Source: Antedon mediterranea (Eukaryota > Echinodermata > Crinoidea > Comatulida > Antedonidae). Taken from it: a DNA stretch of 64,000 nt. The stretch lies in the NCBI RefSeq assembly GCF_964355755.1, contig NC_092671.1, positions 2,832,501 to 2,896,500 on the forward strand. Reading direction: 5' to 3'. Positions 13,016 to 64,000 of the stretch are shown piece after piece (the stretch's first letter is position 1; every line of letters begins with the position of its first letter). The notes below the pieces were generated by a model that saw only the letters and a list, made by a program, of their open reading frames with translations, searched no databases and had not been told where the DNA came from. The position numbers and the translations under genes were made by a program.

Positions 13016-23478
<10,463 letters not shown>

Positions 23479-41810: not shown

Positions 41811-44800
41811 ATGGGCCTACAACACGCGCTGTACAACAACTGGGGCTGGGTGCTGGTTATCTGCTCATTTGTCATCACCATTCCTCTTCATGGAATCGAA
41901 TACAGTTACAATTCGTTAATGGTCTGGTTTCAAGATGAATTCGGTACAAGCAAATCTGAAACAGGTACGAACACTTTTTCTAAGATTAGTAATAATTCAT
42001 ATTTTACTCATGTATTTCATCATTTAATTTTATATTTTAGTGTAAATATAGGTTAATAATTAATTATCATAAAAAATAGTTATGATAACTAATTAATGTT
42101 TATGTTAATTATTTTAGGTCTATAATGCATATTTTACTACGGTTAAACTTGGATTCTCTATTGTTTTATAAACCATTAAAAAAAAGTCTCCGAAGTCTCT
42201 CTAAAATGTTTTTATATTTTTAAAATATTCATTTTGTTATGTAGTAGGCCTACTGTATCATGCATTAGGCCTAACATTAAGACATTCATTCATATTCAAT
42301 TATTACTATACTACGTTTTGTTTTATAAACCATAAAAAGTCTCTCTAAAATGTTGTTAATTTTAAAAATATTCATTACAACATATTTCATTTTGTTATGT
42401 AATATCATGCAAATACCTAACATTATTAAGACATTACTACATCATTATACAGGATCGTATTAAAAAGATAATTGCCTTCCGTAATGTATCTTTTTTAAAG
42501 ACCATTGTCTAAGGACCTGAGTTAGACAAAGGCACCTGTAATAGAATATCTTAATTTTTTAAGCAAACACCATTACAGAGCCTTAATTTTGATGACCTAT
42601 AACATTTTAATTAATTTCTATACAGAGGGTTATTTAATTTTGATGTGGCTAGATTCATCCAGTTTTAGCCATCAAACTATTATTAAAGAATTCACATTCA
42701 GTTGATTACACCACATACATAGTCAGCATACACAAAGCATGGACATTTCGTCAAAAATTTCGCAATTCTTAGTAATTGTTATTAGGCCTATTAACCGTTT
42801 ATTTCACAATAGATCCTTTCAGAATAGAACTGGTAGAACTTCACATTTAAATGAGAAGTTCTAATCAGCCAATCAGATACGAATATTTTTTGTTACTAAG
42901 GGTTTTTTTTTCTCCTCTCCTTAAATTGCAATTTTTGACGCATTAAAAGGTTCGAAGTCCGAAGTCGAATCTATAATCTATTGTCAAGGTAAATTAATGT
43001 TACCAGGCTTGTTATTAATTAATCTAAAGCCATACCCGGCTGTTAAAAAAAGTCGTATAACTGTTACTAATTTTTATTATACCAGCTTATAATTTTGCCT
43101 GCCACCTAATCTTTAAACGTCTTACGATACGAGAGGCTTATATTGGCCTATTCCTAATTTGCATACGATTTTTTCTCGGTTCATGTTCTTGACCAATCAC
43201 TAACGTAATTTTCTTGTTGCTATGCTTGACCATGGATGAATACAATAGACCTAACAATGATTTTATTTTGTTTTGTGAGGAAGTAAAGAGGCCAGTGGTT
43301 AATGCATATTTCATTGTTAATTCAATATGCGGATAATTTGTTCTAATACGGTATTAATTATGTGATTCTCCTGCAAATTGATTTTATAAATGTCAGATTT
43401 TGAAAATTATTCCGGAAAAATCTATTGTCTTTAATATACTGAATATTCATTTTCTTAATCTTTATACAGTGTATATGTGTTTGATTCTCTTTATAAATGT
43501 CAAATTTTGAAAATCATTATACAGTAAACTTCAGGACATATTCGTGACACCTTCGGGACACCTTCGGGATCGACCTACAAAGTGTATATGGGCCGTTTTC
43601 ATTTTAGGCCTATGTTAAAACAAAAATGTATCATTCGTTCGTTTCACAGGAAAGTGTCCCGGGGTGTCCATTAAATGGTGGTGACCCGAAAGGGGACTTA
43701 GTGTCTAATTAAAAATAGTATTGCGTATACACATTGAAATTATTTTAGGCGATTATCTTTTTAATGATATGAATCTATGGAATTAATTTGTGATTCATCC
43801 AAATCAAAATTAGTAAAACGTTAAATTATTAAAGTTTGACCTATGGAACCATAACAAAGTGGATGGCCAAGGACACGAGCGGACACAAATAACTATTGTT
43901 GTCTTATGTTTATAACGATTGGTAGGCTAATTAACCTATCCAGGTAACCAGTGTATACGCATGCGCAATTAATTAGCATACAATCGTCTAATACATTGCC
44001 TATATTAGGCGAGTATACTTTGGATTGCCTTGGTAATTCGGTATTGTAAAGTAATTTAATGCTCTATAGGTTGCAAAGGGCTCACTAGCGCATCCTGACT
44101 TTCAGCACCACTTACAAGAATAACCAATACATGTTGGCTGTAATCTTTCGCAATGACATCCGCATATCCCGTTGTTTTCGTTAAAGGAAATACCAGCTAA
44201 TAATCTATTTTTACAATACAATAAATAACCTGGCTGCGACACATATTTGACAGTATATTGATCGTTTCGAAATATACACTTTATGTTGATCATTTTGATA
44301 AGAACATGAAACTGATAATGTGTCACGTGCTTGAAACATTATAAAGTGACATTAGTCATGTGAACATCACGTGGGCTCGTTATCACCTAATAAGATTATG
44401 ATGATCATCAAAACACCATTTTTAATAGGCCTTATACATAATGACACATTGTTAATGGAAGGTGGGAAGGGTGGGGAGGGGATAATTAATAATTTGGTTA
44501 TGACGAACCTATATAATACTTTGAGTATACAAAAAACTTAAAGTTTACAATAAACAACATAGGCTTACGTTTATTATAGTATCAATTTTAAAATATGTTT
44601 TTATAATTTTCTAATTAAAGACGCCGACTATATTTTAAAATTATGAAAACACTTTTTATCAACTTAATATCATTTTATATTTTTCAGGTTTGGCAGGAAC
44701 CATCGCGATTGGACTTTTGTCTTTGTCGTCACCGATCTCGTTCTACCTCATGGAATACTTTTCAACGCGTGCCATTGTCATGCTCGGCATGGCTATGTGT

Positions 44801-47800
44801 TCCGCTGGACTTTTCGCATCCTCATTCGTGACGTCACTCCCGTACCTGTACTTCACGTATGGCGTAATGTACGGAATGGGTTCAAACTTCGCACACGTAC
44901 CAGGTTTAGCGTTAATTATTAAATATTTTCCTAAGAAACACACCGTCAGTTCTACGTGCATTGCGCAACTCGGTGCAAGTGTTGGTAAGTAACCTTTCCT
45001 CCACACACACACGCACACCCACCCACCACCCCCCACCCACACACAACTACCACACGTCATTTGACTTTAAGACTAGGCCTACACGAAAAAAGATAAGCTC
45101 ATACGCTATCGCAGTTTCGCAGTAGCGTCAACCTTAACTGCGCCCAACACAAATGCATTATTTGGTCTATTTGGGAACTAATGACAATATCATGAATGAC
45201 AATGGATACAAGTTAGTGATTACAAGTAAACAATACGAGTACGATTTCATCCTAATTGTCCAAGCCTGCCAACTTCCTTAAAATTAATTGTACCTTATCA
45301 AACAGCATTTTTAATTGCGTGCTGAGTGACGGATGACTATACAACGTCATCAATTACCTCCCTAACTTAATGAATCGTTCACAATGAAATTAAACTATTA
45401 ACTTAACTAAAACCAATGAAGTTGAAAATGAAATAATTCCTATAAAAGAACAAAGTCAACAATTACAACCCCAACCCCCTCGGCCAAACATTGTGTAAGA
45501 AAAAACAACGTAAATATAATTGGTTAGGAATAGAATATCATGCTATAATACCTACAGTCTAGGTCCTAAACGGCGTTTTGGCTTAATTTTGGTAAAAATA
45601 TAAACATTTTGCCACATTTGGCGTTTCATACTTGTGGCACCTTTCGTAAAGAAATACAAAAAAGACAACACTTGGTCCACAATCTAAACGAAACAGTTTT
45701 GTATCAGACCTCCATCTTTAATACCATTATGATCGACGGTAGTTTCTTCTTTGTATTTACTTTATCGTTATATTTTCAATAGGTGTGATTGCACTGCCAG
45801 TAATCGTTGAGACAATGTTTGGTCAACTTGGATGGAGAGTTTCCCTAAGGATTTTTGCCGGAGTTCTACTGATGACGGGAACGCTGGGAATTGTGTTCGT
45901 ACCCCCATCAGCAGTCGATGAACGCCGAAATTCCAAAGAGATTGAATCTCTGAAAGACCCTGAAAAGGACAGAGCCATGCTGGAGAAACAAGGCCTAGAA
46001 AAAATTGAATTACCAAAGAAAAGTTTCGTCAAACGATACAAGGATTTTATGTCTCAAACTAAGTTCTGGGTGACAGAACTGCTATTCTTCACAATGGCAG
46101 TCGGAGTGACAATGAGTTTAACGAATATTGTAAGCATTAGAACGAAATATAACCATAACAAATGATTGAACGTCATGCGCAAGCGCTGGATTCAAATTTA
46201 CATTCACGATGGCGCGCGTAAGCACAACTCAAGTGAGTTCCGCCAATCAGGTCAGGTGAACTAACGCTTGACATTGGCGCGATCACGTCCTTGTATTGCT
46301 TCCAAATGGGAACCAAGCTTCATAGTTATTAGACAATGTTTCCGCAATTTTCTGAATTAAACAGAAATTATATTTTTGTTTTGCCAAAAGATAATTGTAA
46401 ATTTCCTAAAAACAGAATTATTTTGATATTATCGTAACTCGATTATAGGATATTATTGTAACTGATTATGTTTTCAACATGACGTGTGAACTTCATTCAA
46501 GCCAAACTAATTTGTGTCTTTGGTTTTTTTTCTTCTTCTAGGGAAGCTTTCTATCCGAGACGTCATTAAGCGAAGACATGCAGGTTTTGGTGTTAAGTGT
46601 GATGGGTACCGGTGATTTGGCTGCCCGATTGTTTGTCGCCATTTTTGTCGAGCGTCTTCCATTTTCTAGGACAACATATTTCAGTATTTCCTGCCTTATT
46701 GCTGGTGTTCCTTTCTTTTTCTTAGTTGCTGCGTCCGATTCAGTTCCACTTCTTATTGGACTATTAATTTGTAAGTTAATGTTATGATTAAATGTAGACC
46801 TATTAGTACTAATAAATTGAATAAGATTTCAACCATCCCAATTGACAAGTTAGACGATTGATTGAAACTGATGTTCTCCACTCTAGGCGAATCTATTCGC
46901 GCGAATAAACCATTCCTGCACTCAAAAGCTTTGTCCCCACTATAGGAGCCTTGCAACGTACGGAAGAACATACACAAGTATAATTTGACCAATCACAACG
47001 CGACGATGAATCTTATCTATCGCGTCGTCATTGGATCAAATTTACGTTGCGCTTACGTCTTTGCGCATTATTTTCGTGATAAAGTATATGAAATGAATAC
47101 GCATGCGCATAAACCAATGTTTTCTTTGAAAAACATTCTTCACTCGCAAATATGCTTTTGCTAAATGAAGTAAAAATTTTGATAATGGATGGTATGGATT
47201 AAAAACCAAACTTATTGGGCGGAAAAGATTCGTTTACATCCGATCGTTAAAATACTCTTAATCATGTTTTAAAAATCATGCGACGACCTAATCATATTCT
47301 CTACTTGGCACGATAATACAACCCACAGTTATTAATTTATATCATACTAATTGAATGTATTTTTTTTCTTTCTTGCAGTAATTAATTTTGGTAGAGGTAG
47401 CTTATTTGGTATGATTGTTTCTGTCGGCGTGGAGATTTTTGGCGCGGAAAATTCAGACGAGTCAACAACAAGCGTATTCTTTGCGTTTGGTCTCGGTGGT
47501 CTGCTCGCTGCTCCTGTCGGTGGTAAGTAAACAAAAATTTAAAATTGTTTCAACATCAAACAATGTTGACCTTTTTTATATAATAAAACAATAAATAGAA
47601 TCCAACATTTAGGACACCGGGATACAATATATTCATGGTATAACACTAAGACAGCCAACCCTCTACTCGAAGAGGGACACTGTCCCGAAAGTGTCCCCTT
47701 TATAGGGGTCCTAGTAATAGTATAATTTGTAAATTCAGCAAAAGTCAGCAAAAGGCATACCGTATTACGACAAAACAATGTAATGTCATATTTTTTCATC

Positions 47801-53159: not shown

Positions 53160-53169
53160 TATATAAAAG
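53160..53169 (+). promoter_or_regulatory. TATA box of peptide gene A
   Basis: TATATAAAAG, 54 bases before the ATG at 53223. Transcription would begin near 53190, leaving a short 5' leader. Confidence 0.65.
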
Positions 53170-53222: not shown

Positions 53223-56200
53223 ATGCATTCGGAATTTAACGTATGTCTTCGTTGTATACTTTTCTTAACAGTTATTTCAATCTTAATCTTTCCAACAAGT
53301 AAGTATTTTCTGATTATTTTTTTTCTGATTTTTTTTTCTTATGATTTTTAAAAATTTTATTTTTAATAACGCTATAGTAATAACATTTCATTCGTGTTTC
53401 CAATATGTTCATTTGGTTTTTATTGTTTTTTTATTCATGTAAAACCAGAGAATGCAAAGTTGATTTGTTTGTATTATTGCACATTCCTCTACATAATCAC
53501 ATTTTAGAACCGCATGACTTGACTATTTAATATCTTGTATTTTGTCTAAAAAAATAAATCTTCGTGTTCTGTGAGAAGCATAAAAGTGCATGATCGCAAT
53601 CGTTAATAGTTCTAGTCTTTTTGAGTTTTATTTTATCAATATTTAATCAAATATTTACCTTTTTAGAGTTCGACATAATAGCTAATTGGAAATCCCCTTA
53701 AAAAACGTCAGACTTTTTATTTGGCCTAATAGGCCTCAAGACAGGTGTACTACAGTAGTGTTAAGATAATGTTGTGTAACTGTATGTGTATATTCTTAGT
53801 GTACCATATTTTAAACTTTTTAAACGATTGTTAATGTTTTGCATTAGGTACATTTTAGAGTATTTTAACGTATTTTATTTATTAAAATGTTTTCTATTTT
53901 TATGAGTGCGGCTCGTAAACAAATAAAAAATCCCGGATTGGGATAGGCCTAATAACATTAAATTAAATCTAAATTGTTTGTTCCACAGTACACAAATTTG
54001 TAGTTTCTTCAAAAATAATTTTTTATTTTCATCCAAAAATACTATATTAAGTTAGTGTTTTTTATTTCGTTTGTATTCGTTTTCCTTTCTGTCGAATTCT
54101 CTTTTCTTGTTTACACATTAGTATGCATTCACCTCAGGCTTGACGGTATTGTGTTACACTCCTTCCGTTAGTAATTAGAAACAAAATATGGCTGTTTGTT
54201 AAAAACGACAAAAAAAATGCAAGTCGTTGTCCATCTCCCGCGGCGAGTTACCATCTGAATTAAAGAGAGTAATACAGCAGCACGCGGGAATATTCCGACC
54301 AACAAGTGAACATGATATTGACAAAATACACCGATAGATAAAAATAATGCTTAATTTTAATTGCTCATGTTATAATATTTCACGTTTCATTTACAAACAT
54401 TTTAAATTAGAGAAGGATCCAATTTTCAAAGTCACAACTTTTTGTAAATTTAATTTAAATTTATTTAACTAACTCGATGAAAACCGCCACTAACAGGTTT
54501 GATAAACATAAAACAAGGTATAATAAAGAAACATTTTAACCAATAAATCGAAAACAGATCAATCAAATACAATAAATCATATTTCATTCTCTTGATTTTT
54601 TTAAACAAACATTTTAACATTTAGCATTAAGTGTAGCGAAAAGGTTTTTAGATACTATTATATTTGCAAGATAACAGCTTTTCTCTCAAGATTATAAATT
54701 ACAGATAAAGCCATCTCTATCCACTTCCTACCGACGAAATTAGTAGGACAACAATATTTCTTCTTTTTTATGAAACGAATGAATGCTGTTTGAGGACATA
54801 CCTTTACAATAGATACTACTTTATAGCAGAATTTTAAAATGAATTTTACAACACCCCAATGGATTATAATGACCAACCCGTAGGTCGACGTAACATTCAA
54901 CATACACTCCATACTTTTTCACCCACGAAGTGCACTATTGATACACATGCTAGCAAATAGACTAACTAATGACATTTTTTAACAAATCCCACCTAGGCAA
55001 CCGGTTATTTTCATCTACTACACTCGTGTCTTTCGTTTGTTGAATTGAATATATCAGAGCTGACAAATGCAAAAGATAGTAAACCAAGCACTAATAATAA
55101 CAAAGTTCGTTGCTCGTCTAAAGATGACATGTTTTTTTTTCTTATGATGTATCGTATACACAATTGTAGGCTGCGCTGATCATCTATATATAAATTTACG
55201 TAAGGGCAAAATAGGTAAATTTATAGACCCTTGGAGAATAAACAGAAATAGTATTGTAATGCTATACAATACTGCAAATAGGTATTAACCACTTTTGATC
55301 GCCATTTGAATCAAAAGTGTGTTGGTACTGTTAAATATAATATAAACAAATATACTAATAAACTTTATCACTGTGAGTGTGGGTAGCCCCTACTTTTAGA
55401 TTAAACACATAATAATATAATACTTTATTACTGTCGGTTGTTTCTCAACGTTTGTATTAATTAATAATTACAAAAATATAAACGTATTAGTGGTCTTTAA
55501 ATGTACTTTACTATTTCAATCGACCATGAGACAGTGACAGTTTTAATAAAGTATTAAATCGGAAATGTTTTACTCTATTTAGTGGTATATTATTTATAGG
55601 CCTATAAAAAATATTTCGTTACTGAGAGTGGATAATAAAGAAATATATTAAAGAACCATTTAATATAAAGAATATATTAAAAAATTGTTCCTCTTTGTAC
55701 CTATCCTCATCCCCAACGCTCAACTCTAATGTTAGATACAAAACCCTAAACTCTAATAGATACAAAATTGGGTTTGTTTAAATGAGTCCAAATAACAAAT
55801 TTGGACTAATTTGTGACAAGTTTCTAGGTGCTAATTTTGGTTGACTACATAAATCACTGTGTCTATTTATTTGTTTCTGTAAAAGACAATGTTTTATAGT
55901 CCTGCCGTACGTACATTTGAAATCGCCAGTTTTTTTACGCTGAAATTACTACCGGTATGTATTCGAGAACCATCTGTGGGCACGAACTAGATGGTACGCG
56001 AGCGAAGCGAGCGTACCATCTAGTCTATATATAAATTTACGTAAGGGCAAAATTCGGTAAATCGCGCCTTACTTCTAGAATTTTTACTCGATGGTATATA
56101 AAGTTGGTTCGTACTTTCGGTACTGATTTTAAACACCTGATGTAACCCTGTTTACTAATTAAATTAAGTTAGATAATTAGTTATTGACGATTAAAACGAA

Positions 56201-58116
56201 TTTAGGTTCAACGATTTGCCCCAAATAGGGGTGTTTCCGATCGTGGTATACACTGTCTAATGGATGTCCATCTTGAAACATACCCGCCACAAAAATGCGA
56301 GGAGGCTTCAAATTTTCCTATCTCCTCCTACGATAATTGTTTTTAATAGCTGAAAACCGGTTGAACAGCTAGAGTACAGCATCATAATGTTGAAGACAGG
56401 CCGATTTTCTTAAAAAAATACTATTTTGATAGATTTAATATACGATTATACAAATGTATTGATTTGCGATGAATGGAACATTCCAATCTCTGTTCGACAA
56501 GTTTCTCTCTGCTCCACAAGTGTCTATTCCCTCAGGCGTCGTAAAGGCAAGTACTGTATACTCATAACAGAAATTCGATCCATTTTTTTTTTCAATCTGT
56601 ACTGCCGAGGTTGGATATAGATTTTTTTAAACGGATAATGAGTTAGCGTTTTCAGTCGCCGTATATTATGTACAAATCTTTATTATTGCAGTTAAACCAC
56701 CCACATCATCACCCTTCCCTCACTGGCATGAGTAGTAGTAGTAACTAAGTTAAGTTAGATAATTTAATATTTATTGACGATTTAATCGAATTTATGATTT
56801 GCCCCGAATAGAGGTGGTTTTCACAAATTGTTTTACATTATATAAACATATACACGTCATAGTGATGTATCGTTACATGTACTGTACACTTTCAATCGAC
56901 TAGGACGGTGATAGTTTCAACAAAGTATTACATCGCAATGTTTTACTGTGTTTAGTGGTATATTATTTTTAATATTTCCTTACTAAATGGATAAAGAATA
57001 TATTTAAAAATTGTTCCTCCTTGCACCCATCCTCTTCCCCATCCCTCAACCCTAATGTTACATACAAAACACAACTTATTAAGTTTGTTTAAATTTGACT
57101 TAAACAATTTTAAACAGTTTCTCTTGCGGAAGGAATTCCCAGGGTGCTAATTTTAGTTGAGTACATAAATCAAAGTGTCTATTTATTCGTTCCTGCGGTA
57201 CGTACATTTGAAATCGCCAGTTTTTTAACGCTGAAATTATTATGTATTCAAGAACCATCTGTGGGCCCGACCTAGATGGTACGCGAGCGAAGCGAGCGTA
57301 CCATCTAGTTCTAATTCAATTTGCCTACTGCCTTAAAAAAGAAAGACGCGACATAGATGATTTTGACGTTAAACATGTCATATGGCCTAAGGAGACAGTA
57401 TATGAATTTAATTTAAGACTATAATTATTTTCAAATTATTTGTAATTAAATCATGTCAATACAATTTTTTAATTAAAATTTGTTCAAACAGCTTTAATAT
57501 TTGTATTTAATGAATGAATTTTATTTATTTGTTTAACCGCATGATGAGTTATAATATTTTTGTTTCATTTTTTTTTAAAGATGGTGGCAATAGGTGTAGT
57601 GATAGGTGCAGCGGATCCGACCAACAGTGTAGAAAAATCTGTTCTCAAATTGGCGGGAAACGTAAGGAAAACACATTTAAAAAAACAAATTTATAATTTG
57701 CAGATATATTTCAATAAAATAAAACATTATCAACATTGTACTTTTTTACTGAAAGTAATCATTACACAATATAGTTCTATAAAACCGTTTTGAGTGCGAA
57801 TATTTTCATTCAGTATTGATGGAAACTGCGGGGCGACCTAACGTATAATAATGTTGTTAAATGGTTTGCATGGAAACTAAACACACAAAGTTGGGTTTGT
57901 CAATCTGCACAGATTCAGAAACATTTGAGCACGCGCAACCTTTTTAGAATGAAAACACTTTTGGAACTTCGATTTAAACATTAAAACTCGTTTGTCTTCT
58001 TAGGTTCGGGAGTCACAGATTTACAAAGTTTAAATACAGACAAACAGGTTGGTATTGTTTGCTACTTCGTAACAATTACAATTACTACTTCGCAAGTAAA
58101 AGTTACCACTTCGTAA
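53223..58116 (+). CDS. Candidate cysteine-rich secreted peptide precursor, gene A
   Basis: Not a family I recognise. Proposed exons: 53223-53298, 57581-57661, 58004-58116. Exon 1 encodes a hydrophobic signal peptide (MHSEFNVCLRCILFLTVISI, then LIFPT) and ends in phase 1 at AA|GTAAGT. Exon 2, after a TTTTTTTTAAAG acceptor, gives the core CSDRCSGSDQQCRKIC, then SQIGGK; with exon 3 this forms GGKR, a typical amidation/dibasic cleavage site. Core spacing is C-x3-C-x6-C-x3-C. Exon 3 begins GTTC after TTGTCTTCTTAG. Read to the first stop (58116) the product has 89 residues with a fifth cysteine in the tail; alternatively a donor at 58048 splices onward and the 3' end is unknown. Phases and design match gene B 8 kb downstream. 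A TATA box lies at 53160. The 4.3-kb intron 1 contains two Helitron-like elements. Expected role: secretion and processing to a short disulfide-bonded peptide. This is inference. Confidence 0.6.
55183..56023 (+). mobile_element. Non-autonomous Helitron-like element, copy 1 (841 bp)
   Basis: Starts TCTATATATAAATTTACGTA directly after an A and ends CTAG after a perfect hairpin (GATGGTACGCGAGCG, AA, CGAGCGTACCATC region at 55990-56020). A 5' TC, a 3' CTRR and a subterminal hairpin are the Helitron hallmarks. No Rep/helicase frame. Inside peptide gene A intron 1. Confidence 0.85.
56024..57308 (+). mobile_element. Non-autonomous Helitron-like element, copy 2 (1285 bp), abutting copy 1
   Basis: Starts with the same TCTATATATAAATTTACGTA at the base after copy 1 ends and finishes with the same hairpin and CTAG at 57308, followed by T. 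Its 3' portion (about 56870-57308) aligns with 55490-56023 of copy 1. It also contains two diverged copies of an AAGTTAGATAATTTATTGACG / GATTTGCCCC segment (about 56160 and 56750). Confidence 0.85.
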
Positions 58117-59035
58117 GTAAAAGTTACTACTTCGTAACAGTTACTACTGCGAAAGTAACTGTTGCTACTTCGTAAGTGACAGTTACTACTTCGTAAGTAA
58201 CAGTTACTACTTTGTAAGTAACAGTTAGTACTTTGTAAGTAAAAGTTACTACTTCGTAACAGTTACTACTGCGAAAGTAACTGTTGCTACTTCGTAAGTA
58301 ACCGTTACTACTTCATAACAGTTACTACTTTGTAAGTAAACAGTTAGTACTTTGTAAGTAAAAGTTACTACTTCGTAACAGTTACTACTGCGAAAGTAAC
58401 TGTTGCTACTTCGTAAGTGACAGTTACTACTTCGTAAGTAACAGTTACTACTTTGTAGGTAACAGTTACTACTTCGGAAGTAACAGTTACTACTTCGTAA
58501 GTAACAGTTACTACTTCGTAAGTAACAGTTACTACTTCGGAACAGTTACTACTTTGGAAGTAACAGTTACTACTTCGGAACAGTTACTACTTAGTAAAAC
58601 TAGCGACGCAACGCAAGGACGCAACGCAACGTATAGCTTGGTTCCCACTAGAACGTGACGCAAGGACGTAAACGCAACGCAAGCGTTTACCAATGACAAG
58701 CGAAGTTATAGACAGTTAGCAATCACAAGCGAATAAGCCATGCCATCGCTTGTAATTGGTCAATTCATTTGCGTTGCGTTACGTCCTTGCGTTGCGTCGC
58801 TAGTGGGAACCACGCTTAAGTGATTTGACAAATCACAAGCGATGGATTATTTGAACTGTCGCTTGCCATTGGTCAACACGCTTGCGTTGCGCGTACGTCC
58901 TTGCGTTACGTCCTAGTGGGAACCACGCTTAAGTAACCGTTACTACTGTACTTCGTATAAGTAGCATTTACTACTTCGTAAGTAACAGTTACTAGGCTAC
59001 TTAGTAAAAGTTACTACTTAGTAACAGTTATTACT
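58070..59035. repeat. TTACTACTTCGTAAGTAACAG minisatellite, interrupted by MITEs
   Basis: Irregular units of about 20-24 bp (AACAGTTACTACTTCGTAAG and variants with TTTG or TGCGAAAG) run from about 58070 to 58598 and resume at about 58936-59035. A larger order of about 120 bp is visible (58130, 58250, 58370 repeat TTACTACTGCGAAAGTAACT). A MITE cluster separates the two parts. Confidence 0.9.
58603..58935. mobile_element. Cluster of GACGCAACGCAAGG MITEs inside the minisatellite
   Basis: A short fragment (CTAGCGACGCAACGCAAGGA), a full copy from TAGCTTGGTTCCCACTAGAA to AGTGGGAACCACGCTTAAG, and a second right half (TTGACAAATCACAAGCGATG to GTGGGAACCACGCTTAAG) lie in a row. Confidence 0.85.
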
Positions 59036-60929
59036 TCTCTAATTCGTAATAAAATTCATATTAAATAACGATGGTAAATATGCAATTAAAGCGTTATTAA
59101 TGAAGTTAATGTATTAACAACCAAAATGTTTTACTAGGCGACGCTCTTGTTAATGATTATCAAATTTATAATTTCTATATTAAACATACATGTGTCAACG
59201 TTCACAACTTTATAAGATCAAATTAATCTTTGTCATATAACAATTTTTATTATTTTACCTCTCTTTTACTTTTAAGCCATTAAGTTACAACTTACTTGAT
59301 AGTCGGCTACATTTGAATTCATTACGTCAAAAGAGAATTATTTTAGAGGTACGTATTAATTTAATTTAGCCAAATTTGGCAAAATTTTCACATAATGTTG
59401 CAACCTAATAATTCCTTTTACATTTATCATTTTAAACTCAGTTTACTGTTTGTAAATTTTCCAAAATTGTTGTTAAATATATTTCACAAATAAACACATC
59501 ACAGTTTATGTCATACATCATATTTTATTATTGTAAATGTTTTTATTTTGCAGGTTCTACGAAAACACAAAAAATGAGCTTATTTTTCCACAATTTCACA
59601 CAAAATTAGATGTACAGTACCCTCTGATGAATTACGTCACCACTAAAATTATCACCGAAACTGAAAATAATAGATAGAAATCTAAACCTATTTATTAATA
59701 TTAAAGAATTAAAAATAAGTCTAACAGTATCCATATTGGAAAATATAAAAAGACAAAATGCGTTCTATATATAAATGATTAATGCGCATGTGCAGTTTTG
59801 GTTTTAATGAAATCCCATAATTTAATGAATAAGTTATCTCTGTGTAAATAATTGCTAAAATTAGCCACCAGTCAACTTCAATCGGTCAGCAGACGTACAC
59901 ACTTTACAAGTATAATTCCACGTTTTAATTAGTGATACGCTGCTTTCACTGCCTTGAACTAGTTTCAGACTTCCGTAACTGATTGCTGGATTATTTAATT
60001 AATTAATCAATGACGTTAGCTTGTAAAATCTACCTGATTGTCAAATAAAGTCAGTGTTCATCATTCGACGACCTGGATCTAGGACTTAATGACAACGTAC
60101 ACGCCTAGGACTTCGGATTTTCCGACGACCAGGGCTAAACGGTAATCCTTGGTAGGTCTAAACCACCTGAGCCAGATTCGGGAAAATTGATTCCTTTACT
60201 AACTTTAACAAAGATAAATGAATGAAACACCGTGGCCAAATGACATCACTACATTCTCTAGCATCTGGTCGTCGAAAAATCGAAATGATGACGATTATGA
60301 TGATAATTTGTTGAATATTACGACTACATCATACAGGATGATGAATAAATATAATACTCAAATAAACATTTTAATCGATAAAAGCGATTGATTGATCAAT
60401 TAAATAAATGATTGATGAATAGTGTTTGTTTTTGACTAACTCACAAAGTACGCAAAAAAGACGTAGGTCTACAATCTGTTTTTGACTAATATAGGTAGGG
60501 GTCCGGGACCGTGACAGAACGAGAACGGATGGGGACCCTTTTTTGTTTTTTTTAATGCGCCTTGAGCACTCTTGAGTGGTATGTGCGCTATAAAAATCCT
60601 GTTATTATTATTATTATTAATATTATTGAAACTTCATTGATATTTCTCCAAATGACCGTCTAACTGATAAATCAGTACATTTGGTACTTTAATTAATTTT
60701 TTTGGTACTTTTTAACCTTATATACGATAAGGCCAAACCCACCTACAAGAACTAAGATTTCCCTGTATCATCGCTTATTGAAAACGATCTGATATTAATT
60801 ACTACAGTATAATGTAATCAAGTTATTCATTTAATTTTGTACTACGTATACGAGTATACTGTATGATAATAAACGCGCATTTTTTTAATATTGGTAATAT
60901 GAATTACGGATTAATTAATTTTCGATGGC
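59036..60929. other. Gap between peptide genes A and B
   Basis: A possible further exon of gene A begins at 59553 after TTTTATTTTGCAG, and AATAAA near 60044 could end its transcript; neither is certain. The L2/SINE-like 3' tail is at about 60535-60625. Otherwise AT-rich without recognised features. Confidence 0.45.
60535..60625 (+). repeat. LINE/SINE 3' tail with ATT microsatellite
   Basis: AATGCGCCTTGAGCACTCTT followed by TGTGCGCTATAAAAATCCTG and (TTA)n is the type of tail seen at the 3' end of L2/CR1-like LINEs and their SINEs. Only the tail is present. Confidence 0.6.
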
Positions 60930-60941
60930 TATAATAAAAGG
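60930..60941 (+). promoter_or_regulatory. TATA-like box of peptide gene B
   Basis: TATAATAAAAGG, about 170 bases before the ATG at 61108. Similar in form to the box of gene A. Confidence 0.5.
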
Positions 60942-61107
60942 ACGAGCATTGTAGTTCTGTTTAATTATAACATTGACTGAGTTTTATTGGTAGTACAAGA
61001 TTACAAAAGACCGATCAATGGTATTTACCATTAGATGAAATTTTGGTTTGTCAGTTGCTGGTTAAAGGAATAAAACATAAGACATAATATTGACAATCTT
61101 GTTCAAG

Positions 61108-63346
61108 ATGAATGTTGTCAGTGTTTTTATTTTGGCATTGATGTTGGCAGTATTTAGTATTAGCGATGCAATGTATATAAGAAAAAAAGGTAAGATTTGT
61201 ATCTTTAGTTCCCACCATTTTCCTCTATTATTTTATCTTCTTTTTCCGCATAGTATTCTTCCCATCTTATCACTTACTTCTTTTTTCTTATTTCCTCCTC
61301 CCTTCTTCTACCCATCTTTCACATTTCATTCTTATTAAGTATTTACTTACTAAGTTTTTTTCTCGTTTCTTCCCTTTCGACTTTGTAAATTTTACATCCT
61401 GTTTTAATTATCTTTTCTTCTCCATTCTTTTCTCCTGTTTTCGATTTGAATTTTCTTCTCATTTCTTTTTAATTCTTTCTTCTTCATCCTGTTCTGTCTT
61501 CATATATTTTTTATTTATTTTTCTTCTTTTTCCTTCAATCATCCTATTTTCATCTTGCTTATCTTTTATCCGATTTCTTATCGTCATACGTTCTTCTACT
61601 TTTTTTACCTTTCTTCGTTTCATTTCCATTATTCATACTATCTTCATCAAATTTCCTTAGCGTTGTACACTTAATTTTGTTTATAATTTTTGATATAAAG
61701 TCATATTTTAAGAACTACCTTTGAAATGGTAAACACAATTTGTCTTGAAATAGTATACTCAAATTGTCTTGGAGCATCAATACTTTTTCCTATAAAAGAT
61801 GGATTCAGTAAGCAATATTTGTCGATAAATGTCTGGGAACTAATACCAAATGTACTTTTTTTCTGCTCAGTATACCAATACAAATTGTAATTATCTAGAG
61901 CATTTGAAAAAAATTAAATTAATACAAAATATGGATTCAGTAAGATCGTTCATTAGTTCTTGACGAATGCCTGTCATATCAGCTATCATAATTACAGGAA
62001 GCAATACATAGGCCTATAATGAATAATATTGTTTACATTTGTTTTGTATTGAGGAACGACATGTGACAATTGCCGTGGTAGTGATAATATGTGCGCTTAT
62101 GCATGCAGTTCTGGTAGAAAAAGGGCTGATAGCATGATACAGGGTAAGATGGTATATTATACTAATAATATTAATTAATTAAATTGGTATTTTCTTCACA
62201 AAAAATAAGTAAGAACTTTGTCGGCCCAAAATAATTCCACTGACTTAGAATGAGCGTTCGGATTTGGTCGAAATTTGGTAAGTGGGAAGGAAAATGCTCT
62301 GGAAAACACTGGAAAATAAACCTGTTAAAACTGTTGACTAACTTTCTTTATTTTAAAAGTTTATACAACACAAGGCAGGCCTACACACAATTATGTATTT
62401 AAGATTACGTACGCTATGTTTTTTTGACAAATAATAATTGGTTCCAACGCTTGAATATCGAAACCGTTATCATTGTTGCTTTAACTTTTGGTAGTTCTTT
62501 ATCTTGAAGATTAGGAATTTTTGAAATAATTTTTTTCCTTCTACTTCATAAGTGTAAACATTTACATACAGGCAAAATTTAATATTCATTTGACCTAATT
62601 AATTGGCGTGATTTAAACAAAATATGCATTGAAATTCTGTGATGCGAGTAGTATCATCGGTTGTATCAATCAAAATCCATCCAAGATTTTAACACAAAAT
62701 AAAAAAATAACAATTAATTAATCAATTAAAATCAAAATGTTGTAACACATTTTTCTTTATCCTTTCTTAGGTTCATACGAGAGGGTAAGATGTATTTTGT
62801 ATTATTATTATTATTATTACCATGGCAATCTAATAAGACTGAGCTCCGGAGATCAAAGGGTTTATCAGTGACTGCGACGTGATGAGTTCCACGCCCTTTA
62901 ACAGACACCGCGCGATGCGGAGAATAATATTAGTATTTTTGGTATTTGTCGCAGCCGGACATAAGATCATATGACTGTTACGAGTTCCTATCTTGGCAAG
63001 GCGAGCTCAATCCTGTTGTTACAGGATTAACTTGCTCTTACAGACAACCTAACAACATAAAAATAATAATATATTAAGCCTACAAAATAATAATCAATTC
63101 ATTTTATAAAATCATAAATAAAATTGTATATTATATAAGGAAATAACACTGAAAGCAAATAAAGTACTGTAAACTCCGTTAAAAAAAGAATTAATAGAAA
63201 AACTAATATGTTACTAAAATGTGTATAATTAAGGTAATAATAGACAGTATTATATCTATAATTTATTTCAGAAAAATACCGCGAATGATTATGAAGAAGC
63301 ATTTCAAGCATGTTTATATAACTGGTATTTATATAATAGGAGATAA
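61108..63346 (+). CDS. Candidate cysteine-rich secreted peptide precursor, gene B
   Basis: Not a family I recognise. Exons: 61108-61189, 62054-62143, 62771-62784 (14-nt micro-exon), 63272-63346; phases 1, 1, 0; 86 residues to TAA. Exon 1: signal peptide MNVVSVFILALMLAVFSISD, then AMYIRKK. Exon 2: core CDNCRGSDNMCAYAC, then SSGRKR. So the segment between RKK and GRKR would be released as a 20-residue peptide, C-terminally amidated, with two disulfides. Core spacing is C-x2-C-x6-C-x3-C; GSD is shared with gene A. The last exon adds an acidic/aromatic tail with one more cysteine (EEAFQACLYNW). Skipping the micro-exon would shift exon 4 into an early TGA. Donors (AAAG|GTAAGA, CAGG|GTAAGA, GAGG|GTAAGA) are strong. 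The order of cysteine pairs recalls eclosion-hormone/ITP-type peptides, but a sixth cysteine is missing, so I do not assign it there. Confidence 0.65.
61200..61640. repeat. Polypyrimidine tract in gene B intron 1
   Basis: About 440 bases composed almost wholly of T and C in degenerate TTCTTTTCTCC units, beginning near the exon 1 donor. Confidence 0.85.
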
Positions 63347-64000
63347 TTCGTATTAAAGGTATTTTACAATTTATTTTATCAATTCTATTTATTGCGATAC
63401 AAAATTAATTAAAATGGAGAGAATATTTTCATTCGTTAGAATTTTTACTGTAGGATATTTACGCTTTCAACGAATCCAAAATAGTCATTATTTTACAGCT
63501 TACTGTTTTGAAGTAAACTTTAATTTATTTATGTTGAAAATTAAGCTTTTAAAATTCAGGGGTTTGGGTTTTAATCACCAACTATATATCCGTTATAGAC
63601 AGCGCAAACTCGTTAAATTTTGATCGATATTCACTAGCCTACAGTATCTGCTTCTCCGCCTCCAACACAATTTAAAAATATTTAGAAAAAGCTAAGCGTT
63701 CAATACTAAAGTAGTATTTTCAGCTGGGAGAAACTGTACGTGATACGAAACCAACCAATCATTCAATGATTTTTAGATTTTGCTTCAACGCTGAATATTA
63801 TACCGTCATGAAAGAGTGAAATATACTCAGATTGACAGATTGAGTTTCGGCCAATTCGTGGCCCACGTACCATATTGAAGCTTAACGCGAAATTGTATTC
63901 TATTTATCTATTTAGTGAGTGAGTGGCCGAGCGGTTAAGACAGTGGAATCGGCAGGGGTTCGAGGCTCACTCGCTCCACGGTTCTGGTGGTAGAACGAGT
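63347..64000. other. 3' flank of peptide gene B
   Basis: AT-rich, no exon recognised. It ends in a tRNA-like sequence. Confidence 0.5.
63911..64000 (+). repeat. tRNA-derived SINE head, cut by the window edge
   Basis: A perfect A box within GTGGCCGAGCGGTTAAGAC and a B-box GGTTCGAGGCTC lie closer than in a Ser or Leu tRNA, because the anticodon and variable arms are shortened. Unique-looking sequence follows. A tRNA pseudogene is the alternative. Confidence 0.6.

What the first reader, a model, noticed from the sequence alone, without database searches (positions are those of the whole stretch)
53223..63346. Two tandem genes for small disulfide-rich, probably amidated secreted peptides
Seen: two neighbouring same-strand genes, each with a TATA-like box, a phase-1 signal-peptide exon, and a second exon starting and ending in phase 1. 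Both encode C-x(2,3)-C-x6-C-x3-C with a shared GSD and a following G-(R)KR. The third exons both begin GTTC. This shared design is hard to get by chance and indicates paralogous precursors. Known: G followed by dibasic residues is the standard amidation/cleavage signal of neuropeptide precursors. Inference: a new echinoderm-type peptide hormone, neuropeptide or defence-peptide family. The spacing is loosely like cystine-stabilised-helix peptides, and the cysteine order loosely like EH/ITP hormones, but neither fit is good.
Basis: partly seen in the sequence, partly recalled or inferred. Interest (0 to 1): 0.88.

Follow-up and report, generated by a model that had tools for sequence, protein, structure and literature searches.

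The report
Feather-star precursors of four-cysteine amidated peptides
Two neighbouring genes in a feather-star genome each appear to encode a small secreted peptide, probably a hormone or neuropeptide, with two predicted internal bridges and a processing signal for an amide end; a related exon lies elsewhere on the same chromosome, and peptides of this general kind have already been predicted in feather stars.

Summary
The core observation holds. Two same-strand genes (53223-57696 and 61108-62178) each have a phase-1 signal-peptide exon and a second exon with C-x(2,3)-C-x6-C-x3-C, a shared GSD and G-[R]KR. Frame plus G-basic occurs twice here and in 0 of 100 simulated 64-kb sequences. A scan for phase-1 signal-peptide exons with strong donors returns only these two ATGs in the window, both strands. 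A related exon 8.9 Mb away on the same contig reads NNCDNCRREDMCAYACSSG-stop, with 7 synonymous codon differences from gene 2 against 2 replacements; no signal exon was found in 48 kb upstream of it.

Corrections: both genes read most simply as two-exon precursors of 63 and 68 residues. The proposed third exons are unsupported; three AG|GTTC sites occur where about one is expected.

The genome is a crinoid, probably Antedon: its vasopressin/oxytocin-type peptide is CFWRTCPVG and it encodes one printed A. mediterranea peptide exactly, though a second printed one gave no match. A published survey already predicts amidated four-cysteine crinoid precursors (PCNP6, PCNP7), whose sequences I could not read. 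Best reading: crinoid amidated bicyclic neuropeptides or hormones, possibly already listed.

The parts
53160..53169 (+). TATA-like box of gene 1 (TATATAAAAG)
   Evidence: consensus match only
53223..53298 (+). gene 1 exon 1: signal peptide MHSEFNVCLRCILFLTVISILIFPT, ends in phase 1 at donor CAA|GTAAGT
57581..57696 (+). gene 1 exon 2: NGGNRCSDRCSGSDQQCRKICSQIGGKR then KENTFKKTNL and stop; an alternative internal donor at 57661|57662 is not excluded
57713..57718 (+). AATAAA polyadenylation-type signal of gene 1
   Evidence: motif only
60930..60941 (+). TATA-like box of gene 2 (TATAATAAAAGG)
   Evidence: consensus match only
61108..61189 (+). gene 2 exon 1: signal peptide MNVVSVFILALMLAVFSISDA plus MYIRKK, ends in phase 1 at donor AAG|GTAAGA
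62054..62178 (+). gene 2 exon 2: GTTCDNCRGSDNMCAYACSSGRKR then ADSMIQGKMVYYTNNIN and stop; an alternative internal donor at 62143|62144 is not excluded
62315..62320 (+). AATAAA polyadenylation-type signal of gene 2
   Evidence: motif only

Best explanation
Two tandem paralogous genes of a feather star (probably Antedon) each encode a short secreted precursor that yields one small amidated peptide with two disulfide bridges. Inferred processing: the signal peptide is removed; in gene 2 prohormone convertase cuts after RKK and at RKR; in gene 1 the peptide follows the signal peptide directly and is cut at KR(K); basic residues are trimmed and the exposed glycine is turned into a C-terminal amide. 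Predicted products are GNRCSDRCSGSDQQCRKICSQIG-NH2 (gene 1, signal cleavage site guessed) and GTTCDNCRGSDNMCAYACSS-NH2 (gene 2). The C-x3-C half is probably a short helix that the conserved GSD caps, held by the N-terminal C-x(2,3)-C. Most likely use: a neuropeptide or peptide hormone acting on a membrane receptor. Shown by sequence: exons, phases, cysteine frame, processing sites, a third related exon. Inferred: splicing, processing, disulfides, fold, receptor, tissue.
For: Exon anatomy. Signal-exon scan at strict thresholds: 2 candidates on the + strand and 0 on the - strand of the window, the two being these ATGs (at looser thresholds 6 and 1); 0 on either strand of 40 kb downstream. The scan's design was set knowing the two genes. 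Motif rarity: 0 of 100 simulations. Genes 1 and 2 alike beyond their cysteines: 66 of 20000 cysteine-fixed shuffles reach the score, 82 of 20000 without the GKR tail; pairwise BLASTP E = 2e-04 for that single comparison. Third copy's exon C2:11760590 down to 11760529 (-): E 0.0528 genome-wide with the gene 2 query, 0.019 in the reverse direction; gene 2 against it, 0 of 20000 shuffles; from the first cysteine to the glycine, 7 synonymous codon differences, 2 replacements, 1 codon gap. Crinoid identity. Helix over C-x3-C in both low-confidence models.
Against: No transcript or peptide data were available. Gene 1 as a query found only itself genome-wide at E up to 10 and is not clearly like the third copy (2300 of 20000 shuffles reach its score). 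The third copy has no signal exon in 48,410 bases upstream at the criteria that find genes 1 and 2, so it may be a relic or have an unusual first exon; its two genome-wide E-values above are weak on their own. No Pfam family over its cut-off and no solved-structure match. The models are weak (mean pLDDT 61.6 and 63.7). No sister-species sequence could be searched. Nothing here shows expression in nerves.
Confidence: 0.7

Rival explanations
1. The genes are the Antedon copies of the already predicted crinoid precursors PCNP6 or PCNP7 (or close paralogues), so the family is in print as a prediction.
For: PMC9793003 section 36: AnjapPCNP6 and AmedPCNP7 each comprise a putative amidated peptide with four cysteines of differing spacing. 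The genome encodes one printed A. mediterranea peptide exactly.
Against: Their sequences are only in a figure and supplementary files that I could not read. The published text calls the two non-homologous, and no published sequence was compared. Another printed A. mediterranea peptide gave no match.
Confidence: 0.5
2. Secreted defence (antimicrobial) or venom-like peptides with a cystine-stabilised helix, rather than signalling peptides.
For: Small, four cysteines, C-x3-C helix in weak models, tandem divergent paralogues; gene 1 product has net side-chain charge +2.
Against: Gene 2 and third-copy products have net side-chain charge -1. Flanking basic sites with an amidation glycine are classical for regulatory peptides, though amidated toxins and antimicrobial peptides exist (recalled).
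Confidence: 0.2
3. Longer precursors with third and fourth exons, the extra exons giving an acidic spacer or a second peptide.
For: Donors at 57661|57662 and 62143|62144 match 7 of 9 letters; the acceptor before 62771 has 16 of 17 pyrimidines; a chain to the stop at 63344-63346 is open.
Against: In-frame stops follow both second exons shortly, with AATAAA near; the third copy's cysteine exon also ends in a stop, with AATAAA 73 bases on; GTTC starts are not rare; candidate third-exon products of the two genes show no likeness by eye.
Confidence: 0.2
4. Chance open frames or decayed remnants, not working genes.
For: AT-rich region with repeats; third copy without a found first exon; no known family over its cut-off.
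Against: (both anatomy and motif are rare by chance), and synonymous-biased change between gene 2 and the third copy.
Confidence: 0.06

Closest known systems
Predicted crinoid neuropeptide precursors PCNP6 (Anneissia japonica) and PCNP7 (Antedon mediterranea), PMC9793003
   Same: Crinoid; signal peptide; one amidated peptide with four cysteines, two predicted disulfides
   Different: Unknown: sequences and spacings are in figures and supplements that I could not read
Endothelin / sarafotoxin bicyclic peptides (letter pattern recalled)
   Same: Four cysteines over about 15 residues with C-x3-C at the end; gene 2 has cysteines at 1, 4, 11, 15 against the recalled 1, 3, 11, 15; predicted helix over C-x3-C
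   Different: First pair C-x(2,3)-C, not C-x-C; amidated by inference, whereas endothelins are non-amidated (PMC5627052); no Pfam match
Orexin-type peptides of echinoderms
   Same: Amidated, multi-disulfide
   Different: Six cysteines in echinoderm orexins, including A. mediterranea (PMC9793003); four here
Trissin (arthropod neuropeptide; pattern recalled)
   Same: C-D-x-C start and C-A-x-A-C look alike from memory
   Different: Trissin has six cysteines and shorter spacing (recalled); no trissin sequence was compared in any call
Eclosion hormone and ITP types
   Same: Secreted cysteine peptides; EH types are known in echinoderms
   Different: Six cysteines there, four here

Membership tests
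Amidated neuropeptide / peptide-hormone precursor (general kind) | N-terminal signal peptide | tested here: met
   Genes 1 and 2: hydropathy and exon scan; SignalP was not available. Third copy: none found
Amidated neuropeptide / peptide-hormone precursor (general kind) | Peptide bounded by basic cleavage site with C-terminal Gly | tested here: met
   GGKR(K) in gene 1; RKK before and G-RKR after the peptide in gene 2; third copy ends G-stop
Amidated neuropeptide / peptide-hormone precursor (general kind) | Transcribed, processed, neuronal or endocrine | not testable with these tools
   No RNA or peptide data
Crinoid PCNP6/PCNP7 | Sequence orthology and cysteine spacing | not testable with these tools
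   Text only; supplementary look-ups capped at 0
Endothelin/sarafotoxin | C-x-C-x7-C-x3-C spacing (recalled) | tested here: not met
   C-x(2,3)-C-x(5,6)-C-x3-C
Endothelin/sarafotoxin | Pfam family match | tested here: not met
   No endothelin family among matches up to E 10 (HMMER filters drop most weak matches)
Echinoderm orexin type | Six cysteines in the peptide | tested here: not met
   Four cysteines in each of the three copies; six stated
Eclosion hormone / ITP type | Six cysteines | tested here: not met
   Four cysteines; six stated
Trissin | Six cysteines, three disulfides (recalled) | tested here: not met
   Four cysteines
Trissin | Cognate trissin-type receptor in the genome | not tested
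   No receptor search was run

The most novel reading that the evidence does not exclude
A crinoid-restricted, previously unreported family of amidated bicyclic hormones whose cysteine frame and predicted C-x3-C helix converge on that of endothelins, kept as a tandem pair plus a distant third locus whose codons look to be under purifying selection.
Probability: 0.25. Interest if true: 0.5.

Novelty: new member of a known kind. Interest (0 to 1): 0.36.

Why it matters
Crinoids are the sister group of the other living echinoderms (PMC9793003 abstract), and many of their orphan peptides are only predictions. A genomic locus with paralogues, exon phases, predicted mature sequences and masses makes one such orphan family directly testable by mass spectrometry, in situ hybridisation and receptor screening. 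If the genes turn out to be PCNP6 or PCNP7, this adds gene structure and paralogues to a prediction already in print.

Tried and rejected
Chance: rejected. Known families: Pfam gave nothing for gene 1 and two hits under their cut-offs for gene 2 (FeoB_associated, E 0.044; Fungus-induced, E 0.081), judged unrelated; exon-2 products gave none (only 2 of 3 members long enough to scan). PDB sequences: none, two at E 1.8 and 4.2, one at E 8.6, all unconvincing. More copies: protein queries found three places in all; a loose cysteine-frame scan of 40 kb downstream gave 5 hits, with no CxGSD or GSDxxC, none convincing. A third cysteine-frame hit in the window at 18572-18619 has no GSD and no G-basic site; its frame is shown and I judge it chance, though the frame alone is expected only 0.08 times per window. 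Signal exon of the third copy: none in 48 kb at strict or looser phase-1 thresholds (first 18.4 kb); with any phase and weaker donors, 12 low-quality candidates within 18.4 kb, two of them in phase 1 with a 7-of-9 donor (one exon read from two ATGs), while the same settings give 116 on the + strand of the window, so they were not used. Published peptide strings: five typed strings searched 'anywhere' matched 4 papers, by the cancer-survivor acronym CAYACSs; sequences in figures are not covered by that search. AmedPCNP15 query: no match, which is against a simple A. mediterranea assignment, unless the peptide is split by an intron or has diverged. Fold searches were not run, because both models have mean pLDDT below 64. 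Own error mended: I first read the residue before NNCDNC in the third copy as S; the split codon is xTC (I, L, V or F). The wrong S was in the query (whose match began after it) and in the shuffles, which repeats without it (2300 instead of 2780 of 20000 for gene 1; 0 again for gene 2).
Full report
Observation. The window is C2:2832501-2896500 of a 354-Mb genome in 18 contigs. Gene 1 has a phase-1 exon 53223-53298 and a second exon from 57581; gene 2 has a phase-1 exon 61108-61189 and a second exon from 62054. Their second exons read NGGNRCSDRCSGSDQQCRKICSQIGGKR and GTTCDNCRGSDNMCAYACSSGRKR.

Chance. In 100 first-order Markov simulations of the window, the frame C-x(2,3)-C-x6-C-x3-C averaged 0.08 per 64 kb (observed 3, one of them the apparently unrelated hit at 18572). 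Both the frame followed by G-basic (observed 2) and CxGSDxxC (observed 2) were seen in 0 of 100. These patterns were written after seeing the sequences, so the figures overstate the surprise somewhat. A scan for ATG exons ending in phase 1 at a donor of at least 8 of 9 letters with a 10-residue hydropathy of at least 2.5 gave 2 on the + strand and 0 on the - strand, and both reported signal exons meet these thresholds, so they are the two; at looser thresholds there are 6 and 1. The strict scan gave 0 on both strands of the next 40 kb.

Gene ends. Reading on through exon 2, gene 1 stops at 57694-57696 (63-residue precursor) and gene 2 at 62176-62178 (68 residues), with AATAAA at 57713 and 62315. 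The third copy's exon also ends in a stop, directly after the would-be amidation glycine, with AATAAA 73 bases on. I therefore prefer two-exon genes. The chain to 63346 needs a 14-base micro-exon.

Relatives in the genome. With the gene 2 query a second place appears at C2:11760526-11760588 on the minus strand (E 0.0528); it reads NNCDNCRREDMCAYACSSG-stop behind a pyrimidine-rich acceptor in the same phase, the split first codon being xTC. Searching back from it finds gene 2 (E 0.019), and a hybrid query finds both (E 8.2e-7 and 0.0053). Between its first cysteine and the glycine, compared with gene 2, there are 7 synonymous codon differences, 2 replacements and one codon gap, with a serine kept as AGT in one and TCG in the other: the pattern of purifying selection, though one short pair gives no formal test. 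Against this, no signal exon was found in the 48,410 bases upstream. Gene 1 is the most distant: its query found only itself; its likeness to gene 2 beyond the cysteines is reached by 66 of 20000 shuffles, to the third copy by 2300 of 20000.

Organism. The single neurophysin exon found lies downstream, on the same strand, of a vasopressin/oxytocin-type CFWRTCPVGGKR. PMC9793003 (section read) states that Trp-Arg at positions 3 and 4, in the three crinoids studied, distinguishes their peptide from those of other echinoderms. A 17-residue peptide printed there for A. mediterranea (PCNP4) occurs with 100% identity, together with the GKR that I added to the query. Another printed A. mediterranea peptide (PCNP15) gave no match. 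I conclude a crinoid, probably Antedon, species not settled.

Mechanism. Gene 2 has basic residues on both sides of the peptide (MYIRKK before GTTC, RKR after SSG), giving GTTCDNCRGSDNMCAYACSS-NH2 by the standard convertase and amidation route (established knowledge, not tested). Gene 1's peptide follows the signal peptide directly. The two AlphaFold models are weak (mean pLDDT 61.6, from three aligned sequences, and 63.7, from one), but both place one helix over the C-x3-C half, beginning at the D of GSD or one residue after it; the gene 2 model also has two low-confidence strands in the tail. I infer that GSD is a helix cap. Disulfide pairing was not determined. Net side-chain charges are +2, -1 and -1, which does not favour a cationic membrane-active defence role for all three.

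Comparison. No Pfam family over its cut-off and no convincing PDB sequence relative. Four cysteines exclude the orexin (six in echinoderms), eclosion hormone and ITP (six) and, from recall, trissin patterns. The nearest shape is that of the endothelins (recalled spacing), but the first pair differs and endothelins are not amidated (PMC5627052 passages). The nearest description is in PMC9793003 section 36: AnjapPCNP6 and AmedPCNP7 are predicted amidated four-cysteine peptides. Their letters are not in the text, so identity stays open; I put it at about even odds. My literature searches for peptide strings and for Antedon neuropeptide papers (listing only) gave no sequence match, which does not cover figures or supplements.

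What I saw of papers: PMC9793003 outline with abstract and sections 7, 22 (parts 1-2 of 3), 30, 33, 36, 45 and one find; PMC4772807, PMC5627052, PMC6586643, PMC6668147 and PMC12002301 by passages only; the rest as search listings.

Verdict. A real pair of paralogous precursor genes by sequence evidence, ordinary in kind (amidated cysteine-bridged regulatory peptides), with corrected gene ends, a third relative and a crinoid assignment. Whether the family is new depends on PCNP6 and PCNP7.

Noticed in passing
L017 (G000:C3 about 158200-159230, minus strand): The peptide printed as the single one of A. mediterranea PCNP4 (GLFPTGGMDPLGASYFT-amide) is here the first of a long series in one 463-residue frame, followed by 16 copies of FPGSGGMDTLG-type peptides, mostly xFPGSGGMDTLGNGYFTGKR. 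With Phe near the start, Asp-Pro/Thr-Leu in the core and an aromatic near the end it fits the pedal peptide/orcokinin features that PMC9793003 gives, a precursor which that paper did not find in A. mediterranea. So PCNP4 may be a fragment of that missing precursor.
   Followed up: partly
58062-58597 and 58949-59036: Tandem array between genes 1 and 2, 21-base unit CTACTTCGTAAGTAACAGTTA in about 26 copies with a 122-base higher-order period.
   Followed up: no
55989-56023 and 57274-57308: Two identical copies of the inverted-repeat stretch AGATGGTACGCGAGCGAAGCGAGCGTACCATCTAG in intron 1 of gene 1; their flanks look alike by eye.
   Followed up: no
about 63917-64000: Looks by eye like a tRNA-derived repeat (begins GTGAGTGGCCGAGCGGTTAAGACAGTGG, later GGTTCGAGG); ARAGORN reports no tRNA gene in the window.
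   Followed up: no
whole window: TAGGCCTA (32 times, 0.47 expected) and words such as GCGCAGAA, CAGAACCC and GAACCCAT (19-20 times each) are strongly over-represented against the dinucleotide expectation, pointing to dispersed repeats.
   Followed up: no
44639-46162: Two exons of a major facilitator superfamily transporter upstream of gene 1 (Pfam MFS_1; one just over and one just under the cut-off).
   Followed up: no
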